From the NCBI RefSeq assembly GCF_026151205.1, contig NC_087073.1, positions 17,379,837-17,443,836 of the forward strand: a stretch of DNA of 64,000 nucleotides. The letters run 5' to 3'. The position numbers were made by a program, and so were the translations under genes. The number at the start of each line of letters is the position of its first letter. The stretch's first letter is position 1. The notes under the pieces are model-generated. The model searched no databases. It had not been told where the DNA came from and saw only the letters and a program-made list of their open reading frames with translations. Shown here one piece after another: positions 33,489 to 64,000 of this stretch. Origin of the DNA: Bolinopsis microptera (taxonomy: Eukaryota; Ctenophora; Tentaculata; Lobata; Bolinopsidae).

Positions 33489-36400
33489 ATAGTTGTGGAC
33501 ACAACAAGAAAATTGAAAATAATCTTGTGCGAGGGTAAGGACCCAGATGTCGTTTCTAACCCAAATAAACTTTAAGGAGGCTTCTCATCAGTAGCCGCAC
33601 CTCCGTACTCGGTTTCTGAACTGGAATTCTATGGGCTTCCAGACGGCCAGACCGAGTATTACCATCCCATCCTTCTAGAGTTCATCACAAGTAGCACCCA
33701 CCTTGAAGATCTTTGACACCCAGACACACCCCATTGGCGAACAAACTTTGGATATAATCTTACATGCTCCCGAAGGAATCCCTGGTTTATGGTCTTTCTC
33801 ATCGTCACCAGCACTTTCACTAGGTCACCAGCTCTTTCACTGAAGTCATCAGCCCTTTCACTGAAGTCATCAGATGTGACTCTGATCAACGGTATAGTTG
33901 TGGACACAACAAGAAAATTGAAAATAATCTTGTGCGAGGGTAAGGACCCAGATGTCGTTTCTAACCCAAATAAACTTTAAGGAGGCTTCTCATCAGTAGC
34001 CGCACCTCCGTACTCGGTTTCTGAACTGGAATTCTATGGGCTTCCAGACGGCCAGACCGAGTATTACCATCCCATCCTTCTAGAGTTCATCACAAGTAGC
34101 ACCCACCTTGAAGATCTTTGACACCCAGACACACCCCATTGGCGAACAAACTTTGGATATAATCTTACATGCTCCCGAAGGAATCCCTGGTTTATGGTCT
34201 TTCTCATCGTCACCAGCACTTTCACTAGGTCACCAGCTCTTTCACTGAAGTCATCAGCCCTTTCACTGAAGTCATCAGATGTGACTCTGATCAACGGTAT
34301 AGTTGTGGACACAACAAGAAAATTGAAAATAATCTTGTGCGAGGGTAAGGACCCAGATGTCGTTTCTAACCCAAATAAACTTTAAGGAGGCTTCTCATCA
34401 GTAGCCGCACCTCCGTACTCGGTTTCTGAACTGGAATTCTATGGGCTTCCAGACGGCCAGACCGAGTATTACCATCCCATCCTTCTAGAGTTCATCACAA
34501 GTAGCACCCACCTTGAAGATCTTTGACACCCAGACACACCCCATTGGCGAACAAACTTTGGATATAATCTTACATGCTCCCGAAGGAATCCCTGGTTTAT
34601 GGTCTTTCTCATCGTCACCAGCACTTTCACTAGGTCACCAGCTCTTTCACTGAAGTCATCAGCCCTTTCACTGAAGTCATCAGATGTGACTCTGATCAAC
34701 GGTATAGTTGTGGACACAACAAGAAAATTGAAAATAATCTTGTGCGAGGGTAAGGACCCAGATGTCGTTTCTAACCCAAATAAACTTTAAGGAGGCTTCT
34801 CATCAGTAGCCGCACCTCCGTACTCGGTTTCTGAACTGGAATTCTATGGGCTTCCAGACGGCCAGACCGAGTATTACCATCCCATCCTTCTAGAGTTCAT
34901 CACAAGTAGCACCCACCTTGAAGATCTTTGACACCCAGACACACCCCATTGGCGAACAAACTTTGGATATAATCTTACATGCTCCCGAAGGAATCCCTGG
35001 TTTATGGTCTTTCTCATCGTCACCAGCACTTTCACTAGGTCACCAGCTCTTTCACTGAAGTCATCAGCCCTTTCACTGAAGTCATCAGATGTGACTCTGA
35101 TCAACGGTATAGTTGTGGACACAACAAGAAAATTGAAAATAATCTTGTGCGAGGGTAAGGACCCAGATGTCGTTTCTAACCCAAATAAACTTTAAGGAGG
35201 CTTCTCATCAGTAGCCGCACCTCCGTACTCGGTTTCTGAACTGGAATTCTATGGGCTTCCAGACGGCCAGACCGAGTATTACCATCCCATCCTTCTAGAG
35301 TTCATCACAAGTAGCACCCACCTTGAAGATCTTTGACACCCAGACACACCCCATTGGCGAACAAACTTTGGATATAATCTTACATGCTCCCGAAGGAATC
35401 CCTGGTTTATGGTCTTTCTCATCGTCACCAGCACTTTCACTAGGTCACCAGCTCTTTCACTGAAGTCATCAGCCCTTTCACTGAAGTCATCAGATGTGAC
35501 TCTGATCAACGGTATAGTTGTGGACACAACAAGAAAATTGAAAATAATCTTGTGCGAGGGTAAGGACCCAGATGTCGTTTCTAACCCAAATAAACTTTAA
35601 GGAGGCTTCTCATCAGTAGCCGCACCTCCGTACTCGGTTTCTGAACTGGAATTCTATGGGCTTCCAGACGGCCAGACCGAGTATTACCATCCCATCCTTC
35701 TAGAGTTCATCACAAGTAGCACCCACCTTGAAGATCTTTGACACCCAGACACACCCCATTGGCGAACAAACTTTGGATATAATCTTACATGCTCCCGAAG
35801 GAATCCCTGGTTTATGGTCTTTCTCATCGTCACCAGCACTTTCACTAGGTCACCAGCTCTTTCACTGAAGTCATCAGCCCTTTCACTGAAGTCATCAGAT
35901 GTGACTCTGATCAACGGTATAGTTGTGGACACAACAAGAAAATTGAAAATAATCTTGTGCGAGGGTAAGGACCCAGATGTCGTTTCTAACCCAAATAAAC
36001 TTTAAGGAGGCTTCTCATCAGTAGCCGCACCTCCGTACTCGGTTTCTGAACTGGAATTCTATGGGCTTCCAGACGGCCAGACCGAGTATTACCATCCCAT
36101 CCTTCTAGAGTTCATCACAAGTAGCACCCACCTTGAAGATCTTTGACACCCAGACACACCCCATTGGCGAACAAACTTTGGATATAATCTTACATGCTCC
36201 CGAAGGAATCCCTGGTTTATGGTCTTTCTCATCGTCACCAGCACTTTCACTAGGTCACCAGCTCTTTCACTGAAGTCATCAGCCCTTTCACTGAAGTCAT
36301 CAGATGTGACTCTGATCAACGGTATAGTTGTGGACACAACAAGAAAATTGAAAATAATCTTGTGCGAGGGTAAGGACCCAGATGTCGTTTCTAACCCAAA

Positions 36401-36662
36401 TAAACTTTAAGGAGGCTTCTCATCAGTAGCCGCACCTCCGTACTCGGTTTCTGAACTGGAATTCTATGGGCTTCCAGACGGCCAGACCGAGTATTACCAT
36501 CCCATCCTTCTAGAGTTCATCACAAGTAGCACCCACCTTGAAGATCTTTGACACCCAGACACACCCCATTGGCGAACAAACTTTGGATATAATCTTACAT
36601 GCTCCCGAAGGAATCCCTGGTTTATGGTCTTTCTCATCGTCACCAGCACTTTCACTAGGTCA
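33489..36662. repeat. Satellite array, 405-bp unit, 7.8 copies
   Basis: The unit repeats at exactly 405 bp from ATAGTTGTGGAC to CACTAGGTCA, with no difference between copies noticed by eye. Each unit contains shorter ~21-bp subrepeats (CTTTCACTGAAGTCATCAG and variants). 405 is divisible by 3, so the same short ORFs recur in each unit (82 codons minus, 63 codons plus, and a start-less plus frame reading YSVSELEFYGLPDGQTEYYH), but each unit has stops in every frame, so no read-through protein exists. The flanks do not share the repeat. It could be a young satellite, a rolling-circle or unequal-exchange product, or a tandem copy of a former exon. Confidence 0.95.
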
Positions 36663-42046: not shown

Positions 42047-44172
42047 CAACCCCCTCGCATTGAAGAAATACATCTTTACTGTGATCACAGTTGTGAGACC
42101 ATGAATACGAACATGAGCTCCATTCACCAGTGTTACAAGACACATCATCCATAACAATACTACTACTACTACTATGTCGGAGCTAAGTCCGATCTACGCC
42201 AGAAAACCCCCTCCATATATCCCTGTCCCGCATCAGGGTTCGCAGTTCCTCTTTAGAGTTTGTCCCAACTTCCTTCAGTAACATAGACAAGTAGCTTTGT
42301 CTTGGTCGGCCTTGCTGTGCTCTACCGTGCGTAGGTTCCCATAAGACTAAATCACTGGCAAGTAGCTCAGGATGTCGGATGCAGTGTCCCGCCATTTTTA
42401 ATCTCCTGCTTCGTAACTTGTTTGACAGCCTTGGGAGGCTACCATACAAAGTTATATTGCTGACCTTGTCCTTCCATGAGATACCCAGCACCATACGCAA
42501 CATCTTTGTGTATGTCCCGTCCAAACTTTTCTCTTGAGCCTTTGTCAGTGTCCAGGTTTCTGATCCGTAGAGCAGTACTGATTCACAAGCCGCTATGAAC
42601 AATCTAATCTTTAGGCTCTTTGAGAGTTTGGATTTCCAGATATCCTTCAGTCTATGTAGGGCACCCCACGCTTTTCCCTTTCTAACCCTTATCTCCCTAT
42701 CTGTGCTCTCAATCCAGGAGCCTAAGTAGATGAAATCATCTACATTTTCTATGGCTTCCCCGGATCGACTTTGTAGGTCGCTTGATCGATCCTCCATATT
42801 CAGTGTCATGACCTTGGTCTTGCCTTCGTTTATGTGTAGTCCCACGCTTGCTGCCGCCGATTCTACTCTGAGCAGGAACTCGTTAGCCTTGTCCATGTCC
42901 TCAGATATAAGTGCTATATCATCTGCAAAGTCCACATCGGTGATGATCTTGGGCCCCACTCTTCTGCTTTTTCTACGTTCGAGGGTGAGTCCAAGTCGCT
43001 CCGCATCATCGCCTATGGCTTGCCTCATACAGTAGTCGATGACTATTGCAAAGAGGTAAGGTGCTAAGGTATCACCCTGTAACACACCTGCAAGTATCTC
43101 GAACAATTCAGTTTCTCCGTCTGGAGTTAGGACTTTGGCCATTGTCTTCTCGTACATGAGCCGTATAAGCTGCACGATTTTGACTGGAATGCCGTAAGCT
43201 TCTAGAATCTTTAGCATTTTCCCACGATGTACACTGTCGAAAGCCTTCTTAAAGTCTATAAATGTCAGAACAGCTGGCAGTTTCCGACTCTTGACACCCT
43301 CTATAAGACGTCTCAGTACCAATATCTGTTGAGTTGTTGACCTTCCTGGTCTGAATCCATTCTGGTTTCTACGCAGAATTGTCTCGATTTCTGGCTTCAA
43401 CCGGTTTAGAACCATCTTGTTTAGAGACTTGGCAACTAGGGATGACAAGCTTATTCCCCGATAGTTCATTGGTTCGCTAAGGTCGCCCTTCTTTGGAATT
43501 GGTATGATGTTGGCAGTTGACCATTGGTCTGGTTTCTCACCTTTCAATAGAGCATTGTTACAGAAGTCTAAGACAATTTGATCAAGGTCGCATCGTTTTA
43601 AGACTTCTGGGGCTATGTTGTCGTCACCCCATGCTTTCCCTTCCTTTATGCTGGACTTTGCTTTCCTGTACTCATCCAACGTAAACGGTTCTGTTCCGAT
43701 ATTCAGAGGTGGGTGGACTGGATCAATATCCTCTTCCGCGTTCTCTACCGTCGGTGGTGAGCCGAGAAGAGTAGCAAAATAGTCCTTCCATTTCTGAACC
43801 CTTTCCGTTGGTGAGTTTCCCTTGATTTTGCCAGTATATGATGGAGCTTTACCTGTGATCTTGTTGATCATGGTCCAGCTTTTAGCATGTCTGCCCTGCC
43901 AACTTGCTTCCTCCATAACAATGGGTCGGTCATCTTGCATTTTCCATCTATTAGCTGAAGTCCAACTAATTTGACCACTGTACCCCATCCTACGACAAAT
44001 AGCATTGGCAGAGTTGTTGCTGAAATCGTCGTTACAAACTGTTCCCTCATTGACTATCAGTAATCCTCGTACTCCCACACCAACGTCTCTACCTTTCCAA
44101 TCTATCAGACTAAAATCTGCATCAGGTGTTGTTATTGAATGTGTTACAAATCCTGACATAATACTTTAAGTC
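42047..44172 (-). pseudogene. SRCR exon of copy A disrupted by an RTE-like retrotransposon
   Basis: The 5' two-thirds of the SRCR domain (DFSLIDWKGRDVGVGVRGLL ... WKMQDDRPIVME) end at 43912. The final third (DDVSCNTGEWSSCSYSWSHN, CDHSKDVFLQCEG) resumes at 42148 and runs to the donor at 42047. Between them lies a retroelement (42159-43911) flanked by an 11-bp target duplication. Near the acceptor, a G insertion and a 2-bp deletion relative to copy B shift the frame if TTGCAG (44173) is used. From an internal Met (44159) the SRCR part runs in frame into the reverse transcriptase, giving a 658-codon chimeric ORF. Whether anything is expressed is unknown. Confidence 0.9.
42159..43911 (-). mobile_element. 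RTE-like non-LTR retrotransposon, 5'-truncated, RT intact
   Basis: 1753 bp, flanked by TCCATAACAAT at 42148-42158 and 43912-43922. The frame (residues 84-658 of the chimeric ORF) lacks the N-terminal endonuclease but keeps the RT motifs: NYRGISLSSLVAKSLNK, QNGFRPGRSTTQQ, FIDFKKAFDSVHR (catalytic Asp), GVLQGDTLAPYLF, DVDFADDIALIS (FADD), GLHINEGKTKVM and IYLGSWIE. The C-terminal LYGSETWTL and MAGHCIRHPELLASDLVLWE segments are typical of RTE-like elements. The 3' end is a (TAG)n tail. 5' truncation, short target duplications and a simple-repeat tail fit target-primed reverse transcription. The intact frame suggests a recent insertion. Relatives lie at 19228 and 29636. Confidence 0.9.
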
Positions 44173-45150: not shown

Positions 45151-45965
45151 ATTTTATCAGGATATGTAATACATAATTACATATTATAATATACGTATAC
45201 ATATATTTATTATTTTAACTTAGAATACTTACTAAAAACTTTCGAGCTCACCGCCGTTTTCTGGTCTATTACTGTATTAATTGATCCTGAAAATGAAAGT
45301 CTGAACATGACGTATTTATTATATTATTTATGTGTTGTTATAAATAACACAAAGTTATTAGTTACATTCCATTGCTTCACTATAGTAATCAGCCACACGT
45401 ACAAAATATATTCGAATAAATTATGCTATAAATATCATAAGGACTATGATTTGATAGAAAGAAAGCTTTTATTCTACTGCAATCTTGGAATTAATTTTAC
45501 TTAAACTTACAGTTTTCGTAAAAATTACGCGAGAAATTTACGGACAGTAATTCTATTGAAAGTGTGGAATTTAACCTCGAATCAAGAATTTCTGAAAATG
45601 AATAATTTTTTTTTTTTTGAATTTTTTTGCTTTGGTTGATTACATTTTTCACTCTATAGGTCCTGCTGTAGGAAGCCATGTGTAGTGTCTGGGTAAATTT
45701 CTAAAGCGAATCGTAAAAGACGATGCAACTTGAACACTGTCAGCTAGAGTGGAGAAAAGTCTATGGATAAAGTTTGATGTACTGAGAGGTCCAGATAATA
45801 GACCTCCTTGGTATTTTCTGTAAATAGTTGAAAAGGCGTGACTTAAGTTACCGAAATTTATCTTTATAATATGTAAATATATATGATTTAAATTATGAGG
45901 AATATTGCTGTTTGACGGAGCCACGATTGACGAATTGGCGCAATTGGCCCAGGAATATAATGCAG
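45151..45965. other. No recognised feature
   Basis: AT-rich, with a poly-T stretch near 45608. Homology to copy B has faded, and no Ig array corresponding to 56042-64000 is present. Confidence 0.5.
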
Positions 45966-45976
45966 GGGGGGGGGGT

Positions 45977-46025
<49 letters not shown>

Positions 46026-46053
46026 GGGGGGGGTGGGGGGGGGGGGGGGAGGG
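45966..46053. repeat. Poly-G tract of about 85 bp
   Basis: Almost pure G with a few T interruptions. Start of block X2. Poly-Gly and poly-Pro ORFs here are artefacts; the true length is likely uncertain. Confidence 0.95.
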
Positions 46054-46437
46054 GACCGGCCGGGCCAGGGCAGAGGCATCACCTTAAAGTGGCGCCAAAT
46101 TATTGTTTGAATGTGGGACACTATTGAAAAAGATTTGATTTGATATATCCTCTAAAATCACCTAATTTGTCCAATTTTACATTTCTACTTTATGTCCAAT
46201 TTTACATTTCTACTTTCTACCCCCACGCCGAAAAGGGGGGGGCAGGGGTGCCAACATGTAACGTTACACCACTGTAAGTGTTATATGTTATTCTATTTTC
46301 TATCACATTGACCAGAAAAGGGGTGAAATCATAAACTTTCTCCTTTTGGTTCTTGAAATAGTGGTTTAAAGTTGTAAGTAAATCCTGGATGGCTTCAATA
46401 GGTTACCCGGCATCTGAAAAGCCCACTAAAGCATTCT

Positions 46438-51776: not shown

Positions 51777-51886
51777 CTGAAATAGGTTGATCACTGACGA
51801 TGAAAGTCTTGACATCAATACTTGTCAAATTTACTCAAATCTCTACGCAAATTTGGCCTTCATGTTTTTTATCTTAAAGGGGTTAC

Positions 51887-52339
51887 CTATGTAATATGAG
51901 TCAGATGCTGTATGGGTAATTGGTAAATAGATTGTGTTTGCTTCTCGTCCGTAATATGTAGCCCATGTGGTACTATATTCTGGATTGTCGCATATCTCCG
52001 AGGACGCAGCCACTTCTAAAACCATTTTCCCATTGCAGTATACTTTTATTGTTTTGCCTCGCTTACTGATCATCCAGGTCCTTTGTTGGTCTGCAGGTAA
52101 ACTTACTGGGAAACTGGTGTAGTAACGCATACACTCCCCTATCAGGTACTTAACCGAGTAGGTGGATACAAACCAGATATAGAATGATCCAGCCTGGTAT
52201 AGGTCTGTATCATAAAACCATATCTTAATGTTTTGTCTATTTCCTACAAAACTAATCGAAGTTGTCATATGCAGATACGAAGTCTCCAAGTTAGCATCGA
52301 GGAATCTTTCTCGTATCACGGGATTCCAGGTATCATGCT
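51887..52339 (-). CDS. Receptor-like gene copy B: last ~151-aa module exon
   Basis: 151 codons, phase 1-1. Differs from its copy A counterpart (39717-40169) by only a few residues (SFVGNRQ for SFLGNRQ; LIGECMRYY for LLGECMRYY). It is the last complete exon recognisable on the 3' side. The following CCP exon is only a stub, so the gene's true terminus (membrane anchor or stop exon) is not visible. Reading through the donor gives NPFKIKNMKAKFA and a stop. Confidence 0.75.
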
Positions 52340-52641
52340 CTGAAATATAGATTATTAATAAGAAGTGAACTTTCAGATATCTCACAAAAAGTTAGACTTT
52401 AAATTCTTATCTTGGATGTAAAATGTAAGAGAGTCAGCAATCATTCATTCAATTTTATTTTTGAACGAGCAGTTCATTTGTAATGAAATTAAATCTGGTA
52501 GTGTAAATAGTCCAATAAGAAGCCCAATATTTTCTTAATAAGACTGGAATTATATATTTCATACGAACCAGTAAATGTCTTATTTTGTACAGAATTCAAT
52601 AATCTAATTTTATACAAGCAGAATTTCAGTAATCAACTCAC

Positions 52642-52965
52642 CGATTCCCTGGCACTGAAGAAATACATCTTTACTGTGATCACAGTTGTGAGACCATGAA
52701 TAAGAGCATGAACTCCATTCACCACTGTTACAAAATACATCATCCATAGCAATGGTGCGATCATCTTGCATTTTCCATTTGTCAGTAGAAGTCCAACTAA
52801 TTTGACCACTGTACCCCATCCTACGACAAATAGCATTGGCAGAGTTGTTGCTGAAATCATCATTACAAACTGTTCCCTCATTGACTATCAGTAATCCTCG
52901 TACTCCCACACCAACGTCTCTACCTTTCCAATCTATCAGACTAAAATCTGCATCAGGTGTCGTTA
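52642..52965 (-). CDS. Receptor-like gene copy B: second SRCR exon
   Basis: Encodes DADFSLIDWKGRDVGVGVRG through NCDHSKDVFLQCQG with all six cysteines. Near-identical to 40473-40796. Donor ATCG|GTGAGT. As in copy A, the upstream TTGCAG acceptor position reads GGCAA, so the 5' limit (CTTTCAG|TA, or an acceptor about 60-70 bp further upstream) is uncertain. Starting at CTTTCAG would lose the first beta strand (FVTLSV). Confidence 0.8.
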
Positions 52966-53207
52966 CTGAAAGTGTTACAAATCTTGTTACATAATACTTC
53001 AATTTTGCCATTACGGCTACCAGATCGATACAGCAATATAACAAATATACTTGATTGGTATAACTCTTCCTACTTATAGCCATCTCCGTACAACATACAA
53101 ATTTTCAATTGTGTATCACTATAATTCTTCAGAAATATTTGTAAAAACGTCTTCTTGTGGGAGTACCTATAACTGTTTATCCATACTAACAGTTTACTTC
53201 TACTTAC

Positions 53208-53399
53208 ATGAACACTTAGGCTCAGTCACAAAATAGAACTGCGTATATTGATGACATGTGATTTCACTGTCCCCAAATTGATGGTATCCATCCTCACATC
53301 GGAGAATAACCTTTGTTCCATTGAGTACTGGAAAGTCACTGCTTGCCACAATGTTGCTCCACTTAGCATCTAGTCCAGTGCATTTTGGAACATCAGTTC
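53208..53399 (-). CDS. Receptor-like gene copy B: CCP/Sushi exon
   Basis: 64 codons, with a single residue difference noticed from copy A (GDSEITC for GDTEITC). Four cysteines retained. It separates the two SRCR/~151-aa pairs. Confidence 0.8.
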
Positions 53400-53492
53400 C
53401 TGAACAATTTTTGATCAGTGAAAGTCTTGACATCAATAATTTTCATATATTTACTCGAATCTCTATATAAATTTGACCTTTATGTTTTTTAC

Positions 53493-53948
53493 CTATGTAA
53501 TATAATTCTGAAGCTGTGTGGGTAATTGGGAAAAAGATTGCGTTTGCTTCTCGTCCGTAATATGTAGCCCATGTGGTACTATATTCTGGATTGTCGCATA
53601 TCTCCGAGGACGCAGCCACTTCCAAAACTATTTTTCCATTGCAGTATACTTTTGTGGTTTTGCCACGCTTACTGATCATCCAGGTCCTTTGTTGGTCTGC
53701 AGGCAAACTTACTGGGAAACTGGTGTAGTAACGCATACACTCCCCTAGCAGGTACTTAACCGAGTAGGTGGATACAAACCAGATATAGAATGATCCGGCC
53801 TGGTATAGGTCTGTATCATAAAACCATATCTTAATGTTTTTTCTATTTCCCACAGAACTACTAGAATTAGTTTTCATATGCAGATACAAAGTCTCCAAGT
53901 TAGCACTGAGGAATGTTTCTCGTATCACGGGATTCCAGGTATCATACT
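53493..53948 (-). CDS. Receptor-like gene copy B: first ~151-aa module exon
   Basis: 152 codons, phase 1-1. Closest to 41322-41777 but with some residues shared with the other module copy (QQRTWMISK, NPEYSTTW), suggesting gene conversion between modules. C-terminal landmark altered to TASELYYIG. Confidence 0.75.
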
Positions 53949-54348: not shown

Positions 54349-54711
54349 CAACCCCCTCGCATTGAAGAAATACATCTTTACTGTGATCACAGTTGTGAGT
54401 CCATGAATACGAACATGAACTCCATCCAGCAGTGTTACAAGAAACATCATCCATAGTAATGGGTCGGTCACCTTGCATTTTCCATCTATTAGCTGAAGTC
54501 CAACTAATTTGACCACTGTACCCCATCCTACGACAAATAGAATTGGCAGAGTTGTTACTGAAATCGTCGTTACAAACTGTTCCCTCATTGACTATCAGTA
54601 ATCCTCGTACTCCCACACCAACGTCTCTACCTTTCCAATCTATCAGACTAAAATCTGCATCAGGTGTCGTTATTGAAAGTGTTACAAATCCTGTTACATA
54701 ATACTTCAAGT
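54349..54711 (-). CDS. Receptor-like gene copy B: first SRCR exon (uninterrupted)
   Basis: 121 codons, phase 1-1, acceptor AGTTGCAG, donor GTTG|GTGAGT. Full SRCR domain including the first strand (VTGFVTLSITTPDADFSL), VCNDDF, ICRRMGY, VSCNTAGWSSCSYSW and NCDHSKDVFLQCEG. This is the intact counterpart of the retroelement-split exon at 42047-44172. It connects the Ig region to the SRCR/module/CCP region. Confidence 0.85.
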
Positions 54712-55151
54712 CTGCAACTGATAACGTTACAATTAATTAATGTTACTCTCGCTGCTGGAAACTTAATTCGATTTTTCGTCACAATCGATTAATAAACATG
54801 ATAAATGATTAAATATTAAGTTTGATGTTTGATAACCCCTCCACTTGTACAATGCACTTTAATACGCTGTGCCATTTTCTAAAGCAAATCACCGGACAAA
54901 ACATCACTAAACAACAAATCACTGGACTAAAAACCACCGGAAAATAAATTGCTGGACAACACATCACAGTGGTACTATGATCTCAGACCATGCATTTTGT
55001 GCATTCATAGAGCATCTTCATCCGTTCATTACGCTGATTCCGGGAAGCATTCTTAGGCGAGCATTAGGGGCTCAATTATGGGCTGTCATTCATAAACTGT
55101 CTCCTCATATTCAATTTCTTATCTCTAAAATGTAAAATTGGTATAACTCAC

Positions 55152-55442
55152 CGTATACATAAAGGTGGACTTCAAAATCCTCCTTGTCTGATTCAGTGTT
55201 TTGGAGTGAGGACACAGTGCAAGTGTACGTTTTATTAGAAGTGACAGCTGCTGATTTTACAGTCAGAGTTCCTGTTTGACTGTTGGAGACAGAATCATAG
55301 GATCCTGAACTTGGCACGTATTTGTCGTCACCATCATCAAATCCAGTCCATTCAATGGACATTTCCTTGGTTATTCCCTTTATTTTGCAAGCGAGTGATG
55401 TTTCTGTGTTAATGAGTACTCCCTTGCTTGATACCTCTGTGG
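55152..55442 (-). CDS. Receptor-like gene copy B: divergent Ig exon, SRCR-proximal
   Basis: 97 codons, phase 1-1, strong acceptor TTCCTCCCTGCTCAG, donor TACG|GTGAGT. Reads TSLACKIKGITKEMSIEWTG (Cys...Trp), GTLTVKSAAVTSNKTYTCTV (Y.C) and FEVHLYVYG, a canonical Ig fold outline. It is clearly distinct in sequence from the 20-unit array but shares the ...VYG exon end. Copy A has lost it. Confidence 0.85.
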
Positions 55443-55546
55443 CTGAGCAGGGAGGAATATCAGATTTATGTGGATTGTAAGTAAATGTAAATGTCATGTA
55501 TCGTAGTTCTTAATTGGTATTTATAATGGTCAGACTAAAAACTCAC

Positions 55547-55819
55547 CATAGACGTTGAGTGACACAAGCGTCTCAGAGGGTTTCGACAATGGGTTCCGTC
55601 CAGATGAAACCACACAAGTGTACTCCGTATCCTCTTGTGGGCTGATAACTGTCAGGGTGGAGATCTGAGTATTACCGATAAGTTCCCCTTCAGTTGATCC
55701 GTCTACTGTTTGGTTTCCTTTGGTCCAACTCACTGTAGCTTTTGCTTCTAATCCCGTGACTTTACAGGAGAGAACTGTTTCTTTACCGTTATAAGCATCT
55801 TTGTGTGTCGGTGTTACAT
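55547..55819 (-). CDS. Receptor-like gene copy B: second divergent Ig exon
   Basis: 91 codons, phase 1-1, acceptor GATTTGTAG, donor TATG|GTGAGT. Reads KETVLSCKVTGLEAKATVSW, then STLTVISPQEDTEYTCVVSS and LVSLNVYG. Intermediate between 55152-55442 and the array units. Its counterpart in copy A (44714-44993) is frameshifted. Confidence 0.85.
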
Positions 55820-56041
55820 CTACAAATCAATGCAAATTAGAATTCGTTTACATCGAAACATGGCTCTGGCTACTAAAAATAGTATAATTTTAAAGATTTG
55901 AATCCTTCGATCCCTCTTCTATTAACTGTTAAAAAAGTAAGTTATCGTAAAGCATTTTGAAGTTTGGTAGTAAGATATAAATTCGTACTGATCTTAGAAA
56001 AACTTTAGTGCAAGATTATTGTAAACATTTAAAGAACATAC

Positions 56042-56332
56042 CATAAACGTTAAGATTGACGGTTGTATCCGAGTGGCTCGAAGCAGGTAAAGAACCGGAA
56101 GTCACTCTGCAAGTGTAGGCAGTATCTTCATTCACAAGAGTCCCGTCTACAGCAAGAGTTGATGTTTGTGTCCCTCCAGAATGGCTTCCTTGGACAGGGG
56201 TGAACTTTTCAGCTGGAACTGGTCCTGTACTAGTTCGCCAGGTCACTGTTGCAGTTTCTGCCAATCCAGTGATAACACAGGATATTGTTGAATCAGAGCC
56301 TTTCTTCGCTTCTTTGTTTACTGATTCAACGT
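56042..56332 (-). CDS. Ig array unit 1 (most 3', most divergent)
   Basis: 97 codons. Private changes: EAKKGSDSTISC where the others have EVKKGSDTTISC, GLAETATV and SLPASSHSD. Cys (ISC), Trp (TVTW) and Y.C (AYTC) are kept. The acceptor reads TATCTCAG. Being the boundary unit it probably escapes most exchange. Confidence 0.85.
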
Positions 56333-56441
56333 CTGAGATAAGTTATCGTAAAGAATTTTGAAGTTTGACTGTAAGTATAAATTCAATCTCAAATTATCAA
56401 AACTGTAGTGCAAGAATATTGTAAACATTTAAAGAACATAC

Positions 56442-56732
56442 CATAAACGTTAAGATTAACGGTGGTATCCGAATGTCTGGAATCAGGTAAAGAACCGGAA
56501 GTCACTCTGCAAGTGTAGGCAGTATCTTCATTCACAAGAGTCCCGTCTACAGCAAGAGTTGATGTTTGTGTCTCTCCAGAATGGCTTCCTTGGACAGGGG
56601 TGAACTTTTCAGCTGGAACTGGTTTTGTACTAGTTCGCCAGGTCACTGTTGCAGTTTCTGCCAATCCAGTGATAACACAGGATATTGTTGTATTTGAGCC
56701 TTTCTTCACTTCTTTGTTTACTGATTCAACGT
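56442..56732 (-). CDS. Ig array unit 2
   Basis: Variant residues: GSNTTISC, GLAETATV (shared with unit 1), STKPVPAEKF (unique Lys), GETQTST, SLPDSRHSD. Confidence 0.85.
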
Positions 56733-56841
56733 CTGAAGTAGGTTATCGTAAAGAATTTTGAAGTTTGACTGTAAGTATAAATTCAATCTCAAATTATCAA
56801 AACTGTAGTGCAAGAATATTGTAAACATTTAAAGAACATAC

Positions 56842-57132
56842 CATAAACGTTAAGATTAACGGTGGTATCCGAATGTCTGGAATCAGGTAAAGAACCGGAA
56901 GTCACTCTGCAAGTGTAGGCAGTATCTTCATTCACAAGAGTCCCGTCTACAGCAAGAGTTGATGTTTGTGTCTCTCCAGAATGGCTTCCTTGGACAGGGG
57001 TGAACTTTTCAGCTGGAACTGGTCCTGTACTAGTTCGCCAGGTCACTGTTGCTGTTTCTGTCAATCCAGTGATAACACAGGATATTGTTGTATCTGAGCC
57101 TTTCTTCACTTCTTTGTTTACTGATTCAACGT
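56842..57132 (-). CDS. Ig array unit 3
   Basis: GLTETATV, STGPVPAEKF, GETQTST, SLPDSRHSD. The 3' part is like unit 2 and the 5' part like the rest of the array, suggesting a recombinant. Confidence 0.85.
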
Positions 57133-57241
57133 CTGAAGTAGGTTATTGTAAAGCATTTTGAAGTATGACTGTAAGTATAAATTCAATCTCAAATAATCAA
57201 AACTGTAGTGCAAGATTATTGTAAAAATTTAAAGAACATAC

Positions 57242-57532
57242 CATAAACGTTAAGATTGACGGTGGTATCCGAATGGGTGGAATCAGGTAAAGAACCGGAA
57301 GTCATTCTGCAAGTGTAGGCAGTATCTTCATTCACAAGAGTCCTGTCTACAGCAAGAGTTGATGTTTGTGTCCCTCCAGAATGGCTTCCTTGGACAGGGG
57401 TGAACTTTTCAGCTGGAACTGGTCCTGTACTAGTTCGCCAGGTCACTGTTGCTGTTTCTGTCAATCCAGTGATAACACAGGATATTGTTGTATCTGAGCC
57501 TTTCTTCACTTCTTTGTTTACTGATTCAACGT
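57242..57532 (-). CDS. Ig array unit 4
   Basis: STGPVPAEKF, GGTQTST, AVDRTLV, CRMTSG (unique Met), STHSD. Counterpart of unit 10. Confidence 0.85.
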
Positions 57533-57641
57533 CTGAAGTAGGTTATTGTAAAGCATTTTGAAGTATGACTGTAAGTATAAATTCAATCTCAAATAATCAA
57601 AACTGTAGTGCAAGATTATTGTAAAAATTTAAAGAACATAC

Positions 57642-57932
57642 CATAAACGTTAAGATTGACTGTGGTATCCGAATGGGTGGAATCAGGTAAAGAACCGGAA
57701 GTCACTCTGCAAGTGTAGGCAGTATCTTCATTCACAAGAGTCCCGTTTACAGCAAGAGTTGATGTTTGTGTCTCTCCAGAATGGCTTCCTTGCACAGGGG
57801 TGAACTTTTCAGCCGGAACTGGTCTTGTACTAGTTCGCCAAGTCACTGTTGCTGTTTCTGTCAATCCAGTGATAACACAGGATATTGTTGTATCTGAGCC
57901 TTTCTTCACTTCTTTGTTTACTGATTCAACGT
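57642..57932 (-). CDS. Ig array unit 5
   Basis: STRPVPAEKF, GETQTST, AVNGTLV (creates an N-G-T glycosylation sequon), STHSD. Counterpart of unit 11. Confidence 0.85.
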
Positions 57933-58046
57933 CTGAAGTAGGTCATTGTAAAGCATTTTGAAGTTTGACTGTAAGTATAAATTCAATCTCAAATTGATGA
58001 AACTGTAGTTCAAGATTATTGTAAACAAATATATTAAAGAACATAC

Positions 58047-58337
58047 CATAAACGTTAAGATTGACAGTGGTATCCGAATGGCTGGAATCAGGTAAAGAAC
58101 CGGAAGTCACTCTGCAAGTGTAGGCAGTATCTTCATTCACAAGAGTCCCGTCTACAGCAAGAGTCGATGTTTGTGTCCCTCCAGAATGGCTTCCTTGGAC
58201 AGGGGTGAACTTTTCAGCTGGAACTGGTCCTGTACTAGTTCGCCAGGTCACTGTTGCTGTTTCTGTCAATCCAGTGATAACACAGGATATTGTTGTATCT
58301 GAGCCTTTCTTCACTTCTTTGTTTACTGATTCAACGT
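58047..58337 (-). CDS. Ig array unit 6
   Basis: STGPVPAEKF, GGTQTST, AVDGTLV, SSHSD. The downstream intron is 5 bp longer than usual. Counterpart of unit 12. Confidence 0.85.
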
Positions 58338-58446
58338 CTGAAGTAGGTTATTGTAAAGCATTTTGAAGTTTGACTGTAAGTATAAATTCAGTCTCAAATT
58401 ATTGAATCTGGAGTGCAAGATTATTGTAAAAATTTAAAGAACATAC

Positions 58447-58737
58447 CATAAACGTTAAGATTGACGGTGGTATCCGAATGGCTGGAATCAGGTAAAGAAC
58501 CATAAGTCACTCTGCAAGTGTAGGCAGTATCTTCATTCACAAGAGTCCCGTCTACAGCAAGAGTTGATGTTTGTGTCCCTCCAGAATGGCTTCCTTGGAC
58601 AGGGGTGAACTTTTCAGCCGGAACTGGTCTTGTACTAGTTCGCCAGGTCACTGTTGCTGTTTCTGTCAATCCAGTGATAACACAGGATATTGTTGTATCT
58701 GAGCCTTTCTTCACTTCTTTGTTTACTGATTCAACGT
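58447..58737 (-). CDS. Ig array unit 7
   Basis: STRPVPAEKF, AVDGTLV, CRVTYG (Tyr for Ser), SSHSD. Counterpart of unit 13. Confidence 0.85.
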
Positions 58738-58846
58738 CTGAAGTAGGTTATTGTACAGCATTTTGAAGTTTGACTGTAAGTATAAATTCAGTCTCAAATT
58801 ATTGAATCTGTAGTGCAAGATTATTGTAAAAATTTAAAGAACATAC

Positions 58847-59137
58847 CATAAACGTTAAGATTGACGGTGGTATCCGAATGGCTGGAATCAGGTAAAGAAC
58901 CAGAAGTCACTCTGCAAGTGTAGGCAGTATCTTCATTCACAAGAGTCCCGTCTACAGCAAGAGTTGATGTTTGTGTCCCTCCAGAATGGCTTCCTTGGAC
59001 AGGGGTGAACTTTTCAGCTGGAACTGGTCCTGTACTAGTGCGCCAGGTCACTGTTGCTGTTTCTGTCAATCCAGTGATAACACAGGATATTGTTGTATCT
59101 GAGCCTTTCTTCACTTCTTTGTTTACTGATTCAACGT
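58847..59137 (-). CDS. Ig array unit 8
   Basis: Consensus protein: STGPVPAEKF, GGT, AVDGTLV, RVTSG, SSHSD. Confidence 0.85.
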
Positions 59138-59246
59138 CTGAAGTAGGTTATTGTAAAGCATTTTGAAGTTTGACTGTAAGAATGAATTCAATCTCAAATT
59201 ATCGAAACTGTATTGCAAGATTATTGTAAACATTTAAAGAACATAC

Positions 59247-59537
59247 CATAAACGTTAAGATTGACAGTGGTATCCGAATGGCTGGAATCAGGTAAAGAAC
59301 CAGAAGTCACTCTGCAAGTGTAGGCAGTATCTTCATTCACAAGAGTCCCGTCTACAGCAAGAGTTGATGTTTGTGTCCCTCCAGAATGGCTTCCTTGGAC
59401 AGGGGTGAACTTTTCAGCTGGAACTGGTCCTGTACTAGTGCGCCAGGTCACTGTTGCTGTTTCTGTCAATCCAGTGATAACACAGGATATTGTTGTATCT
59501 GAGCCTTTCTTCACTTCTTTGTTTACTGATTCAACGT
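59247..59537 (-). CDS. Ig array unit 9
   Basis: Exon protein same as unit 8. Differs mainly in silent bases and intron. Confidence 0.85.
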
Positions 59538-59646
59538 CTGAAGTAGGTTATTGTAAAGCATTTTGAAGTATGACTGTAAGTATAAATTCAATCTCAAATA
59601 ATCAAAACTGTAGTGCAAGATTATTGTAAAAATTTAAAGAACATAC

Positions 59647-59937
59647 CATAAACGTTAAGATTGACGGTGGTATCCGAATGGGTGGAATCAGGTAAAGAAC
59701 CGGAAGTCACTCTGCAAGTGTAGGCAGTATCTTCATTCACAAGAGTCCTGTCTACAGCAAGAGTTGATGTTTGTGTCCCTCCAGAATGGCTTCCTTGGAC
59801 AGGGGTGAACTTTTCAGCTGGAACTGGTCCTGTACTAGTTCGCCAGGTCACTGTTGCTGTTTCTGTCAATCCAGTGATAACACAGGATATTGTTGTATCT
59901 GAGCCTTTCTTCACTTCTTTGTTTACTGATTCAACGT
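59647..59937 (-). CDS. Ig array unit 10
   Basis: STGPVPAEKF, AVDRTLV, CRVTSG, STHSD. Differs from unit 4 only by Val for Met. Confidence 0.85.
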
Positions 59938-60046
59938 CTGAAGTAGGTTATTGTAAAGCATTTTGAAGTTTGACTGTAAGTATAAATTCAATCTCAAATA
60001 ATCAAAACTGTAGTGCAAGATTATTGTAAAAATTTAAAGAACATAC

Positions 60047-60337
60047 CATAAACGTTAAGATTGACGGTGGTATCCGAATGGGTGGAATCAGGTAAAGAAC
60101 CGGAAGTCACTCTGCAAGTGTAGGCAGTATCTTCATTCACAAGAGTCCCGTTTACAGCAAGAGTTGATGTTTGTGTCTCTCCAGAATGGCTTCCTTGGAC
60201 AGGGGTGAACTTTTCAGCCGGAACTGGTCTTGTACTAGTTCGCCAAGTCACTGTTGCTGTTTCTGTCAATCCAGTGATAACACAGGATATTGTTGTATCT
60301 GAGCCTTTCTTCACTTCTTTGTTTACTGATTCAACGT
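60047..60337 (-). CDS. Ig array unit 11
   Basis: STRPVPAEKF, GETQTST, AVNGTLV sequon, STHSD; exon protein as unit 5. Confidence 0.85.
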
Positions 60338-60451
60338 CTGAAGTAGGTCATTGTAAAGCATTTTGAAGTTTGACTGTAAGTATAAATTCAATCTCAAATT
60401 GATGAAACCTTAGTTCAAGATTATTGTAAACATATATATTAAAGAACATAC

Positions 60452-60742
60452 CATAAACGTTAAGATTGACAGTGGTATCCGAATGGCTGGAATCAGGTAA
60501 AGAACCGGAAGTCACTCTGCAAGTGTAGGCAGTATCTTCATTCACAAGAGTCCCGTCTACAGCAAGAGTCGATGTTTGTGTCCCTCCAGAATGGCTTCCT
60601 TGGACAGGGGTGAACTTTTCAGCTGGAACTGGTCCTGTACTAGTTCGCCAGGTCACTGTTGCTGTTTCTGTCAATCCAGTGATAACACAGGATATTGTTG
60701 TATCTGAGCCTTTCTTCACTTCTTTGTTTACTGATTCAACGT
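60452..60742 (-). CDS. Ig array unit 12
   Basis: Exon protein as unit 6, with the same elongated downstream intron. Confidence 0.85.
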
Positions 60743-60851
60743 CTGAAGTAGGTTATTGTAAAGCATTTTGAAGTTTGACTGTAAGTATAAATTCAGTCTC
60801 AAATTATTGAATCTGTAGTGCAAGATTATTGTAAAAACTTAAAGAACATAC

Positions 60852-61142
60852 CATAAACGTTAAGATTGACGGTGGTATCCGAATGGCTGGAATCAGGTAA
60901 AGAACCATAAGTCACTCTGCAAGTGTAGGCAGTATCTTCATTCACAAGAGTCCCGTCTACAGCAAGAGTTGATGTTTGTGTCCCTCCAGAATGGCTTCCT
61001 TGGACAGGGGTGAACTTTTCAGCCGGAACTGGTCTTGTACTAGTTCGCCAGGTCACTGTTGCTGTTTCTGTCAATCCAGTGATAACACAGGATATTGTTG
61101 TATCTGAGCCTTTCTTCACTTCTTTGTTTACTGATTCAACGT
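60852..61142 (-). CDS. Ig array unit 13
   Basis: STRPVPAEKF, CRVTYG; exon protein as unit 7. Confidence 0.85.
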
Positions 61143-61251
61143 CTGAAGTAGGTTATTGTACAGCATTTTGAAGTTTGACTGTAAGTATAAATTCAGTCTC
61201 AAATTATTGAATCTGTAGTGCAAGATTATTGTAAAAATTTAAAGAACATAC

Positions 61252-61542
61252 CATAAACGTTAAGATTGACGGTGGTATCCGAATGGCTGGAATCAGGTAA
61301 AGAACCATAAGTCACTCTGCAAGTGTAGGCAGTATCTTCATTCACAAGAGTCCCGTCTACAGCAAGAGTTGATGTTTGTGTCCCTCCAGAATGGCTTCCT
61401 TGGACAGCGGTGAACTTTTCAACTGGAACTGATCCTGTAGTAGTTCGCCAGGTCACTGTTGCTGTTTCTGTCAATCCAGTGATAACACAGGATATTGTTG
61501 TATCTGAGCCTTTCTTCACTTCTTTGTTTACTGATTCAACGT
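61252..61542 (-). CDS. Ig array unit 14
   Basis: TTGSVPVEKFTAV in place of STGPVPAEKFTPV, plus CRVTYG. The most divergent loop variant. The intron on its upstream side (61543-61651) carries a private GTATGTTATCG variant shared only with unit 18. Confidence 0.85.
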
Positions 61543-61651
61543 CTGAAGTATGTTATCGTAAAGCATTTTAAAGTTTGACTGTAAGCATAAATTCGATCTT
61601 AAATTATCAAAACTGTATTGCAAGATTATTGTAAAAATTTAAAGAACATAC

Positions 61652-61942
61652 CATAAACGTTAAGATTAACGGTGGTATCCGAATGGCTGGAATCAGGTAA
61701 AGAACCGGAAGTCACTCTGCAAGTGTAGGCAGTATCTTCATTCACAAGAGTCCCGTCTACAGCAAGAGTTGATGTTTGTGTCCCTCCAGAATGGCTTCCT
61801 TGGACAGGGGTGAACTTTTCAGCTGGAACTGGTCCTGTACTAGTGCGCCAGGTCACTGTTGCTGTTTCTGTCAATCCAGTGATAACACAGGATATTGTTG
61901 TATCTGAGCCTTTCTTCACTTCTTTGTTTACTGATTCAACGT
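61652..61942 (-). CDS. Ig array unit 15
   Basis: Consensus protein (GP, GGT, VDGT, TSG, SSHSD). Counterpart of unit 19. Confidence 0.85.
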
Positions 61943-62051
61943 CTGAAGTAGGTTATTGTAAAGCATTTTGAAGTTTGACTGTAAGAATAAATTCAATCTC
62001 AAATTATGGAAACTGTATTGCAAGATTATTGTAAAAATTTAAAGAACATAC

Positions 62052-62342
62052 CATAAACGTTAAGATTGACAGTGGTATCCGAATGGCTGGAATCAGGTAA
62101 AGAACCGGAAGTCACTCTGCAAGTGTAGGCAGTATCTTCATTCACAAGAGTCCCGTCTACAGCAAGAGTCGATGTTTGTGTCCCTCCAGAATGGCTTCCT
62201 TGGACAGGGGTGAACTTTTCAGCTGGAACTGGTCCTGTACTAGTTCGCCAGGTCACTGTTGCTGTTTCTGTCAATCCAGTGATAACACAGGATATTGTTG
62301 TATCTGAGCCTTTCTTCACTTCTTTGTTTACTGATTCAACGT
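62052..62342 (-). CDS. Ig array unit 16
   Basis: Consensus protein. Counterpart of unit 20. Confidence 0.85.
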
Positions 62343-62451
62343 CTGAAGTAGGTTATTGTAAAGCATTTTGAAGTTTGACTGTAAGTATAAATTCAGTCTC
62401 AAATTATTGAATCTGTAGTGCAAGATTATTGTAAAAATTTAAAGAACATAC

Positions 62452-62742
62452 CATAAACGTTAAGATTAACGGTGGTATCCGAATGGCTGGAATCAGGTAA
62501 AGAACCGGAAGTCACTCTGCAAGTGTAGGCAGTATCTTCATTCACAAGAGTCCCGTCTACAGCAAGAGTTGATGTTTGTGTCCCTCCAGAATGGCTTCCT
62601 TGGACAGGGGTGAACTTTTCAGCCGGAACTGGTCTTGTACTAGTTCGCCAGGTCACTGTTGCTGTTTCTGTCAATCCAGTGATAACACAGGATATTGTTG
62701 TATCTGAGCCTTTCTTCACTTCTTTGTTTACTGATTCAACGT
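62452..62742 (-). CDS. Ig array unit 17
   Basis: STRPVPAEKF with CRVTSG. Resembles units 7/13 except for the Ser at the TYG/TSG site. Confidence 0.85.
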
Positions 62743-62851
62743 CTGAAGTAGGTTATTGTACAGCATTTTGAAGTTTGACTGTAAGTATAAATTCAGTCTC
62801 AAATTATTGAATCTGTAGTGCAAGATTATTGTAAAAATTTAATGAACATAC

Positions 62852-63142
62852 CATAAACGTTAAGATTGACGGTGGTATCCGAATGGCTGGAATCAGGTAA
62901 AGAACCATAAGTCACTCTGCAAGTGTAGGCAGTATCTTCATTCACAAGAGTCCCGTCTACAGCAAGAGTTGATGTTTGTGTCCCTCCAGAATGGCTTCCT
63001 TGGACAGCGGTGAACTTTTCAACTGGAACTGATCCTGTAGTAGTTCGCCAGGTCACTGTTGCTGTTTCTGTCAATCCAGTGATAACACAGGATATTGTTG
63101 TATCTGAGCCTTTCTTCACTTCTTTGTTTACTGATTCAACGT
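62852..63142 (-). CDS. Ig array unit 18
   Basis: TTGSVPVEKFTAV and CRVTYG; exon protein as unit 14. Confidence 0.85.
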
Positions 63143-63251
63143 CTGAAGTATGTTATCGTAAAGCATTTTAAAGTTTGACTGTAAGCATAAATTCGATCTT
63201 AAATTATCAAAACTGTATTGCAAGATTATTGTAAAAATTTAAAGAACATAC

Positions 63252-63542
63252 CATAAACGTTAAGATTAACGGTGGTATCCGAATGGCTGGAATCAGGTAA
63301 AGAACCGGAAGTCACTCTGCAAGTGTAGGCAGTATCTTCATTCACAAGAGTCCCGTCTACAGCAAAAGTTGATGTTTGTGTCCCTCCAGAATGGCTTCCT
63401 TGGACAGGGGTGAACTTTTCAGCTGGAACTGGTCCTGTACTAGTGCGCCAGGTCACTGTTGCTGTTTCTGTCAATCCAGTGATAACACAGGATATTGTTG
63501 TATCTGAGCCTTTCTTCACTTCTTTGTTTACTGATTCAACGT
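63252..63542 (-). CDS. Ig array unit 19
   Basis: Consensus except STFAVDGT (Phe for Leu). Confidence 0.85.
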
Positions 63543-63651
63543 CTGAAGTAGGTTATTGTAAAGCATTTTGAAGTTTGACTGTAAGAATAAATTCAATCTC
63601 AAATTATGGAAACTGTATTGCAAGATTATTGTAAAAATTTAAAGAACATAC

Positions 63652-63942
63652 CATAAACGTTAAGATTGACAGTGGTATCCGAATGGCTGGAATCAGGTAA
63701 AGAACCGGAAGTCACTCTGCAAGTGTAGGCAGTATCTTCATTCACAAGAGTCCCGTCTACAGCAAGAGTCGATGTTTGTGTCCCTCCAGAATGGCTTCCT
63801 TGGACAGGGGTGAACTTTTCAGCTGGAACTGGTCCTGTACTAGTTCGCCAGGTCACTGTTGCTGTTTCTGTCAATCCAGTGATAACACAGGATATTGTTG
63901 TATCTGAGCCTTTCTTCACTTCTTTGTTTACTGATTCAACGT
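63652..63942 (-). CDS. Ig array unit 20 (last complete unit in window)
   Basis: Consensus protein. The window ends 58 bp into the intron beyond it, whose sequence again matches array introns, so at least one further unit is expected. Confidence 0.85.
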
Positions 63943-64000
63943 CTGAAGTAGGTTATTGTAAAGCATTTTGAAGTTTGACTGTAAGTATAAATTCAGTCTC

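What the first reader, a model, noticed from the sequence alone, without database searches (positions are those of the whole stretch)
56042..64000. At least 20 near-identical, frame-neutral Ig exons in tandem
Seen: 291-bp exons with a full Cys-Trp-Tyr.Cys Ig signature, identical phase 1-1 junctions and ~110-bp conserved introns, repeated every 400-405 bp and running off the window. Known: symmetric phase 1 exons are the classic substrate for exon duplication and for in-frame skipping. Inferred: the gene either makes a very long Ig rod or has a pool of interchangeable Ig exons, with copy number likely to vary between individuals. This is the best candidate for an undescribed system here.
Basis: partly seen in the sequence, partly recalled or inferred. 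Interest (0 to 1): 0.9.

Follow-up and report, generated by a model that had tools for sequence, protein, structure and literature searches.

The report
Tandem Ig-exon arrays in a ctenophore
A comb-jelly gene carries 25 nearly identical, intact immunoglobulin-domain exons in a row, one of about a dozen such arrays seen in this genome, which most likely encode very long, length-changeable extracellular rod proteins of unknown role.

Summary
On the minus strand, 20 complete 291-bp Ig exons lie at 56042-63942, all open, phase 1-1. Five more follow outside the window, so the array is finite: 25 units. The genome is a ctenophore's, probably Bolinopsis microptera. Matching exons lie on five large contigs; a 21-base diagnostic pattern has 278 exact matches, its reversed control none. 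In 13 stretches examined, 172 of 187 units are intact. Between-array dN/dS is 0.06-0.25 (15 pairs); within this array exons differ 2.6%, introns 7.9%. These are selected coding exons, not satellite DNA. Near-identical units recur at offsets of four and six units, the footprint of unequal exchange. Ig, SRCR, Sushi and unassigned domains follow. Best reading: serial splicing into a long extracellular Ig rod whose length is free to change, working like DMBT1 or LPA domain arrays. A Dscam-like exon pool is disfavoured: 25 units encode only 13 proteins. Transcripts and copy-number variation could not be tested. New variant of a known kind.

The parts
56042..63942 (-). 20 complete 291-bp Ig exons (units U25 to U06 in sense order) with 109/114-bp introns; continues outside the window to 25 units, ending 1,942 bp past the window edge
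55547..55819 (-). divergent Ig exon directly 3' of the array (273 bp, phase 1-1), about 42% identical to the unit
55152..55442 (-). second divergent Ig exon (291 bp, phase 1-1)
54349..54690 (-). SRCR exon (proposed boundaries, phase 1-1)
   Evidence: Pfam PF00530 1.3e-12; candidate splice sites
53446..53948 (-). unassigned ~150-aa domain, first copy (exon starts 53948, phase 1; 3' end of the exon not fixed, range runs to the end of the open frame)
   Evidence: no Pfam match, no PDB match for the family profile
53208..53399 (-). Sushi exon (192 bp, proposed boundaries, phase 1-1)
   Evidence: Pfam PF00084 6.7e-05, 23.6 bits vs cut-off 20.7
52642..52965 (-). second SRCR exon (324 bp, proposed boundaries, phase 1-1)
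   Evidence: reading frame, splice sites; not itself scanned with Pfam, by eye near-identical in protein sequence to the SRCR at 54349-54690
51843..52339 (-). unassigned ~150-aa domain, second copy, proposed terminal exon with stop codon at 51843-51845; the C-terminal tail and stop are shared by paralogous copies
55923..55938 (.). boundary, inside the intron 5' of the first divergent Ig exon, where homology to two paralogous copies of the 3' half ends (55938 vs the 73-77 kb copy, 55923 vs the 38-45 kb copy); TRF starts the array at 55935

Best explanation
This is part of a protein-coding ctenophore gene (probably Bolinopsis microptera). It has 25 near-identical symmetric Ig exons, preceded by three divergent Ig-like exons and followed by Ig-Ig-SRCR-(unassigned domain)-Sushi-SRCR-(unassigned domain). 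Most likely all units are spliced in series: each adds exactly 97 residues in frame, so the 25 exons give about 2,425 residues of Ig rod in an extracellular protein. Unequal exchange between misaligned units adds or removes whole blocks without breaking the frame, keeps the units alike and lets rod length drift. The job of the rod is probably to space out or multiply the binding surfaces of a secreted or surface adhesive/scavenger-type molecule. Shown: exons, frame, splice-site consensus, purifying selection, block duplication, neighbouring domains. Inferred: serial splicing, one gene across array and flanks, extracellular location, length polymorphism and function.
For: All 25 units are open and phase 1-1. 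136 of 137 introns between neighbouring intact units in 12 arrays are GT-AG, one is GC-AG. pN/pS is 0.40 within the array and 0.19-0.49 between it and the 11 other arrays; dN/dS is 0.06-0.25, median 0.17, over the 15 pairs of six array consensuses (the other six arrays, mostly close relatives of these, were left out of that count). 172 of 187 units in 13 stretches are intact, against 30% stop-free after random substitution at 10.7% divergence. Exon difference 2.6% vs intron 7.9%. Near-exact copies at offsets of four and six units. Flanking exons lie on the same strand and have phase-1 candidate boundaries where both were found. SRCR, Sushi and (nearby) CUB matches and two Cys per unit point to an extracellular protein. 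A signal-peptide-like first exon with a phase-1 donor lies upstream of the neighbouring paralogue, at 79697 extended. AlphaFold's best model has seven strands and mean pLDDT 80.6 (the other four 62-73).
Against: No transcript was available, so serial joining is not shown. No convincing signal peptide or TM segment was found for this gene: the strict scan gave no signal-peptide candidate between 66 and 73.5 kb and no TM-like segment at 36-52 kb; a relaxed scan of 66.6-73.6 kb listed nine candidates, none with a consensus phase-1 donor that I trust. The published B. microptera assembly is long-read with gap closing and pilon polishing (passages), so unit number and homogeneity may be partly assembly effects. 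15 of 187 units elsewhere are broken or partial, and the stretches were picked from the strongest listed matches, which favours intact units. The predicted fold has no PDB match at E <= 0.001; many of the weak matches are Ig constant-type domains. Within single arrays pN/pS runs from 0.20 to 0.95, so selection inside some arrays is not clear.
Confidence: 0.72

Rival explanations
1. Alternative-exon pool: one or a few of the 25 exons are chosen per transcript, as in arthropod Dscam, to diversify a recognition domain.
For: Symmetric phase-1 exons allow any subset; the array is bounded by other Ig exons in the same phase; 24 of 96 residues vary somewhere in the array.
Against: 25 units give 13 distinct proteins and 17 distinct DNA sequences, so choice would add little. 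Selection is purifying between arrays. Between the consensus intron and three flanking introns no Watson-Crick run exceeds shuffles; one wobble-allowed 13-nt run with the 5' intron is reached by 5 of 60 shuffles. Dscam paralogous exons by contrast showed no sign of gene conversion (PMC3236188, abstract).
Confidence: 0.1
2. Serial rod, but with frequent in-frame skipping or length choice, so that one gene makes a ladder of rod lengths.
For: Every exon is exactly 97 codons and frame-neutral; introns are much alike, so skipping would be tolerated.
Against: Nothing seen here shows skipping; splice sites are nearly uniform.
Confidence: 0.12
3. Non-functional amplification: a coding exon captured in a satellite-like array, open only because it is young.
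For: Block duplications and identical units show recent amplification; some arrays hold broken units, 6 of 11 in L017; pN/pS within several arrays is 0.5-0.95.
Against: Purifying selection between arrays, conserved splice sites, introns diverging faster than exons; consensus dS of 0.14-0.47 between arrays leaves time for decay that has mostly not happened.
Confidence: 0.04
4. Assembly artefact: unit number and near-identity were produced by long-read misassembly or short-read polishing.
For: The published B. microptera assembly used gap closing and pilon polishing (passages); a perfect 405-bp repeat elsewhere in the window looks suspicious.
Against: Units differ individually in exon and intron, with coherent higher-order blocks; similar arrays with other intron lengths lie on other contigs.
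Confidence: 0.05

Closest known systems
DMBT1 / gp340 / salivary agglutinin (human)
   Same: Large secreted protein with tandemly arrayed domain units; copy number changes in single SRCR units (CNV2) and in a 4-SRCR block (CNV1), 7-20 domains per molecule, high recurrent mutation (PMC4851238, passages). SRCR exons (and a CUB exon nearby) also occur here.
   Different: In DMBT1 the repeated unit is SRCR; here it is an Ig domain and the SRCR domains are single. The ZP domain was not looked for. Variation between individuals is untested here.
LPA (apolipoprotein(a)) kringle IV type 2 repeats
   Same: Domain-coding repeats inside one gene that give many protein sizes (PMC6314250, start of abstract in the listing).
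   Different: Kringle rather than Ig; 5.6-kb repeat instead of about 400 bp; one gene rather than many arrays.
Arthropod Dscam variable Ig exons
   Different: Dscam exons are mutually exclusive, with no sign of gene conversion between them (same abstract); here units are homogenised and no mutual-exclusion signal was found in a limited test.
Titin/obscurin-type giant Ig proteins
   Same: Long runs of Ig domains acting as a rod (recalled).
   Different: Here the neighbours are SRCR and Sushi; PMC12198301 reports absence of connectitin in ctenophores (passages).
SRCR genes with Ig domains in Mnemiopsis leidyi
   Same: SRCR combined with Ig reported in another ctenophore; 55 SRCR genes, 12 of them changed on Vibrio re-exposure (PMC11797021, passages).
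   Different: No tandem array of near-identical Ig exons is mentioned in the passages read; orthology not testable here.

Membership tests
Immunoglobulin superfamily domain | Significant match to an Ig profile with Cys-Trp-Cys core | tested here: met
   C1-set and I-set over their cut-offs; C18, W31, C74 invariant in 25 units; AF2 best model pLDDT 80.6, seven strands; Foldseek only weak, no E <= 0.001
Dscam-like alternative exon cluster | Diversified paralogous exons | tested here: not met
   13 distinct proteins among 25; pN/pS 0.40 in the array
Dscam-like alternative exon cluster | Docking/selector RNA pairing | tested here: inconclusive
   Only three flanking introns tested, against base-shuffled controls: no Watson-Crick run above shuffles; one wobble run reached by 5 of 60
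Dscam-like alternative exon cluster | Mutually exclusive inclusion in transcripts | not testable with these tools
   no transcripts held
DMBT1-like domain array (works like) | Tandem frame-neutral near-identical domain exons with block duplication | tested here: met
DMBT1-like domain array (works like) | Copy-number polymorphism between individuals | not testable with these tools
   one assembly only
DMBT1 family (membership) | Array made of SRCR domains | tested here: not met
   array unit is Ig
Titin/obscurin family | Intracellular, with kinase/SH3/RhoGEF domains (recalled) | tested here: inconclusive
   SRCR, Sushi and CUB neighbours argue against; kinase not searched in the flanks
Hydractinia Alr-type allorecognition receptors | Transmembrane Ig receptor with polymorphic ectodomain and signalling tail (recalled) | tested here: inconclusive
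   strict scan found no TM-like segment at 36-52 kb and a stop follows the last domain in three copies; polymorphism not testable

The most novel reading that the evidence does not exclude
Ctenophores carry a genome-wide system of Ig-rod genes (arrays on five chromosome-size contigs, at least 278 units) whose rod length is continually reset by in-frame block duplication and loss, so individuals differ in rod lengths. The rods are joined to SRCR and other candidate ligand-binding domains, giving a length- or avidity-polymorphic recognition or adhesion repertoire without diversifying the Ig sequence itself.
Probability: 0.3. Interest if true: 0.82.

Novelty: new variant of a known kind. Interest (0 to 1): 0.62.

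Why it matters
It would add an Ig-based version of the frame-neutral domain-array mechanism known from DMBT1 and LPA in an early-branching animal lineage, repeated across chromosomes and homogenised within groups of arrays while the protein stays under purifying selection. Iso-Seq reads were used to annotate the published Bolinopsis genome (PMC10232365, passage), so serial versus alternative use could be answered directly. If rod lengths vary between individuals, ctenophores would have a fast-evolving extracellular repertoire that standard annotation and short reads tend to miss.

Tried and rejected
Organism: searches of G000 for Cellulose_synt (PF03552) and COX1 (PF00115) found nothing, so my first guess (tunicate) got no support, though an exon-by-exon miss shows no absence; the glutamate-receptor route gave the ctenophore answer.

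The unassigned domain: from memory I first called it 'FAMeT-like' (notes). Pfam gives no match for any of three versions, PDB none for a five-sequence profile, and AlphaFold failed (pLDDT 33), so the name is withdrawn.

Single giant gene from 79.7 kb to 39.7 kb: considered after the signal-peptide-like exon was found; set aside because three copies of the last exon share a tail and stop codon, which fits tandem paralogues better.

Loop-biased variation (a hint of recognition) was not found: 17 of 52 strand, 4 of 9 helix and 13 of 35 other positions vary between array consensuses.

Monophyly of each array: only 4 of 12 arrays (C11b, C13b, C4a, C4c) are clean clades; C11a/c/d, C13a/c and C2/C7 intermix, and C4b is scattered (midpoint-rooted FastTree of 109 distinct units). 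Homogenisation is therefore by groups of arrays, not strictly per array, and C4b (9.4% internal difference) is an exception.

Fold search: no PDB match at E <= 0.001. Second haplotype of this array: not seen, but the rows listed there hold no C2 place at all, so this says nothing.

Mended on checking: I had first written the offset-six block as U12-U17 ~ U18-U23; the matrix bears out U13-U16 ~ U19-U22 only.
Full report
WHAT WAS CHECKED. The window is G000:C2:17379837-17443836 of a 264.65-Mb genome in 232 contigs. Reading 55,000-64,000 and extracting exons gives 20 units of exactly 291 bp, 56042-56332 to 63652-63942, all on the minus strand, all open, all with the same split-codon (phase 1) junctions. 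TRF finds the same array at 20.1 copies of period 400, 96% matches. Fetching the next 20 kb shows five more units and then the end: 25 units, the last (5'-most) at 65652-65942 in extended coordinates, where 64001 is the first base past the window. One further Ig exon at 55.5-55.8 kb is only about 42% identical and was not counted as a unit.

THE UNIT. The 96-residue core has two Cys and the Trp and Tyr of an Ig domain, invariant in the 25 units. Pfam: C1-set 27.3 bits (cut-off 21), I-set 25.5 (23.7), Ig_3 27.4 (below its 30). phmmer against PDB gives 841 matches at E <= 1, best 4.4e-05; the 60 shown are mostly antibody chains matched in their constant part, with a few insect Ig receptors. AlphaFold2 on nine window sequences gives a best model of mean pLDDT 80.6 with seven strands, but Foldseek finds nothing at E <= 0.001, so the fold rests on sequence more than on the model.

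WHOSE GENOME. The first half of the ligand-binding domain of an uninterrupted glutamate-receptor frame in G000 scores 106.9 bits with ML032222a iGluR, 82 with 4zdm ('Glutamate receptor kainate-like protein') and 58.3 or less with all others of the 60 shown. That ML032222a is from Mnemiopsis leidyi, and 4zdm from another ctenophore, is recalled. The published Bolinopsis microptera assembly is 265 Mb with 13 chromosomes and 38.5% GC, but with 346 scaffolds against 232 contigs here; the Mnemiopsis chromosome assembly is 248 Mb (table passage in PMC11797021; assembly methods in passages of PMC10232365). I take the organism as a ctenophore (firm) and as B. microptera (likely; the scaffold count does not fit exactly).

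A GENOME-WIDE FAMILY. A DNA search with one unit gives 385 matches, those listed being on C4, C7, C11 and C13. A protein search gave 813 first-look candidates; the 150 scored and listed lie on C2, C4, C7, C11 and C13 and none shows an internal stop. These contigs are 16-23 Mb long. A 21-base degenerate pattern for Glu-Asp-Thr-Ala-Tyr-Thr-Cys has 278 exact matches (88 forward, 190 reverse); the reversed control has none (only about 100 places are listed). I fetched 12 further stretches with arrays, chosen from the strongest listed matches. Periods differ: about 400 bp on C2, C7 and C4, 454 and 466 on C13, 472 and 428-458 on C11.

ARE THEY REAL EXONS? In 13 stretches (this array included) 172 of 187 units are intact (two of them with a codon inserted) and 15 broken or partial; three Ig copies under 60% identity were left out. 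For the 154 full-length ungapped units used, 136 of 137 introns between neighbours are GT-AG and one is GC-AG. pN/pS is 0.40 within this array and 0.19-0.49 between it and the 11 others. On consensuses of six of the twelve arrays, dN/dS is 0.06-0.25, median 0.17, in 15 pairs. Random substitution at 10.7% would leave 30% of units stop-free. Within the array, exons differ by 2.6% and introns by 7.9%. Against this, within single arrays pN/pS runs from 0.20 to 0.95, on few differences. Together this shows selected coding exons at the level of the family.

HOW THE ARRAY GROWS. Neighbouring units are not the most alike (mean 6.9 exon differences at lag 1, no identical pair of 24); identical exon pairs occur only at lags 4 (4 of 21), 6 (2 of 19), 8 (4 of 17) and 10 (1 of 15) among lags 1-12. 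U03-U06, U07-U10 and U11-U14 are near-copies (0-3 exon differences per pair; introns 0-2 except the last intron of the third block), and U13-U16 match U19-U22 (0-2 differences). That is the pattern expected of unequal exchange of multi-unit blocks. Human DMBT1 shows the same logic, with a 4-domain block as a multi-allelic CNV, 7-20 domains per molecule and a high mutation rate (passages of PMC4851238). A tree of 109 distinct units shows that homogenisation acts within groups of arrays: C11a/c/d, C13a/b/c and C2/C7/C4c cluster (support 1.0, 0.99, 0.75); C11b, C13b, C4a and C4c are single clades; C4b is scattered.

THE GENE AROUND IT. Sense direction is right to left. 5' of the array lie three more Ig-like exons (66.3-67.7 kb extended), with phase-1 candidate boundaries where found; their Pfam support is weak (one without a match, two with Ig_3 below its cut-off). 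3' of it come Ig 55547-55819, Ig 55152-55442, SRCR 54349-54690, an unassigned ~150-aa domain, Sushi 53208-53399, SRCR 52642-52965 and a second copy of the unassigned domain ending in a stop at 51843-51845. The same 3' half exists twice more: a neighbour at 73.3-77.4 kb (91-93% identical, but lacking about 180 bp of its first SRCR exon), and a damaged copy at 38.2-45.1 kb. A signal-peptide-like first exon lies upstream of the neighbour at 79697. Tails and stops of the last exon are shared by the three C2 copies, and similar tails occur on C3. In the neighbour, the stretch 5' of its first Ig exon holds no array unit but an SRCR-like frame (77416-77796, no Pfam match) and an SRCR exon (78.5-78.9 kb); homology to this gene stops at 55938 inside the intron, so array and 3' half meet within an intron. 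No TM-like segment was found at 36-52 kb by a strict scan, and this gene's own first exon was not identified. Other arrays also lie near SRCR (C7, C11b) or the unassigned domain (C13a, C13c); whether these are in the same genes is not shown.

SERIAL OR ALTERNATIVE? Against a Dscam-like pool: the units encode 13 proteins among 25, selection is purifying between arrays, and the consensus intron has no Watson-Crick run with three flanking introns above 60 shuffles each; one wobble run of 13 with the 5' intron is reached by 5 of 60. These are indirect; cDNA decides. My reading is serial splicing, giving about 2,425 residues of Ig rod. What it binds is open. Some SRCR genes respond to Vibrio re-exposure in Mnemiopsis (PMC11797021, passages), and an Ig domain occurs among colloblast candidate genes (PMC6278862, passage); both are leads, not tests.

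IN PRINT? Those aimed at ctenophores with Ig or related terms (also 21 and 63) listed no paper whose title or abstract start describes such arrays; some searches looked for precedents. PMC11797021 (passages) reports SRCR genes with Ig domains in Mnemiopsis. The main texts of PMC13231562 and PMC11184263 hold no 'immunoglobulin' or 'SRCR', and that of PMC10232365 no 'immunoglobulin'. Most subscription papers and all supplements were out of reach, so absence from print is not shown.

Noticed in passing
33489-36662: 405-bp unit repeated 7.8 times with seven complete copies 100% identical and no reading frame much over 100 codons; either a very young satellite or a gap-closing artefact of the assembly.
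   Followed up: partly
51843-53948 and G000-wide: An unassigned ~150-aa domain with conserved Trp/Cys positions: no match in Pfam or PDB, yet 328 first-look candidates and 150 scored matches across the genome. Could be a ctenophore-expanded domain worth a family model.
   Followed up: partly
42186-44165: SRCR frame of the damaged third paralogue runs directly into a reverse-transcriptase-like frame, as if broken by an insertion.
   Followed up: no
L003-L006 (C1, C8, C9, C12): Four glutamate-receptor matches lie in uninterrupted frames of 917-970 aa, so several of the 32 iGluR matches look intronless.
   Followed up: no
L015, L017 (C11:20.71-20.81 Mb): Several C11 Ig arrays lie about 17-110 kb from the end of the 20.83-Mb contig, perhaps subtelomeric.
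   Followed up: no
L017: Array stretch with 6 of 11 units broken by frameshift or stop: decaying array or sequencing error.
   Followed up: no
28817-29228: Blocks of a 10-bp minisatellite (ACTGCTGCTC) alternating with its reverse complement.
   Followed up: no
45965-46054: 90-bp run of G with 91% matches.
   Followed up: no
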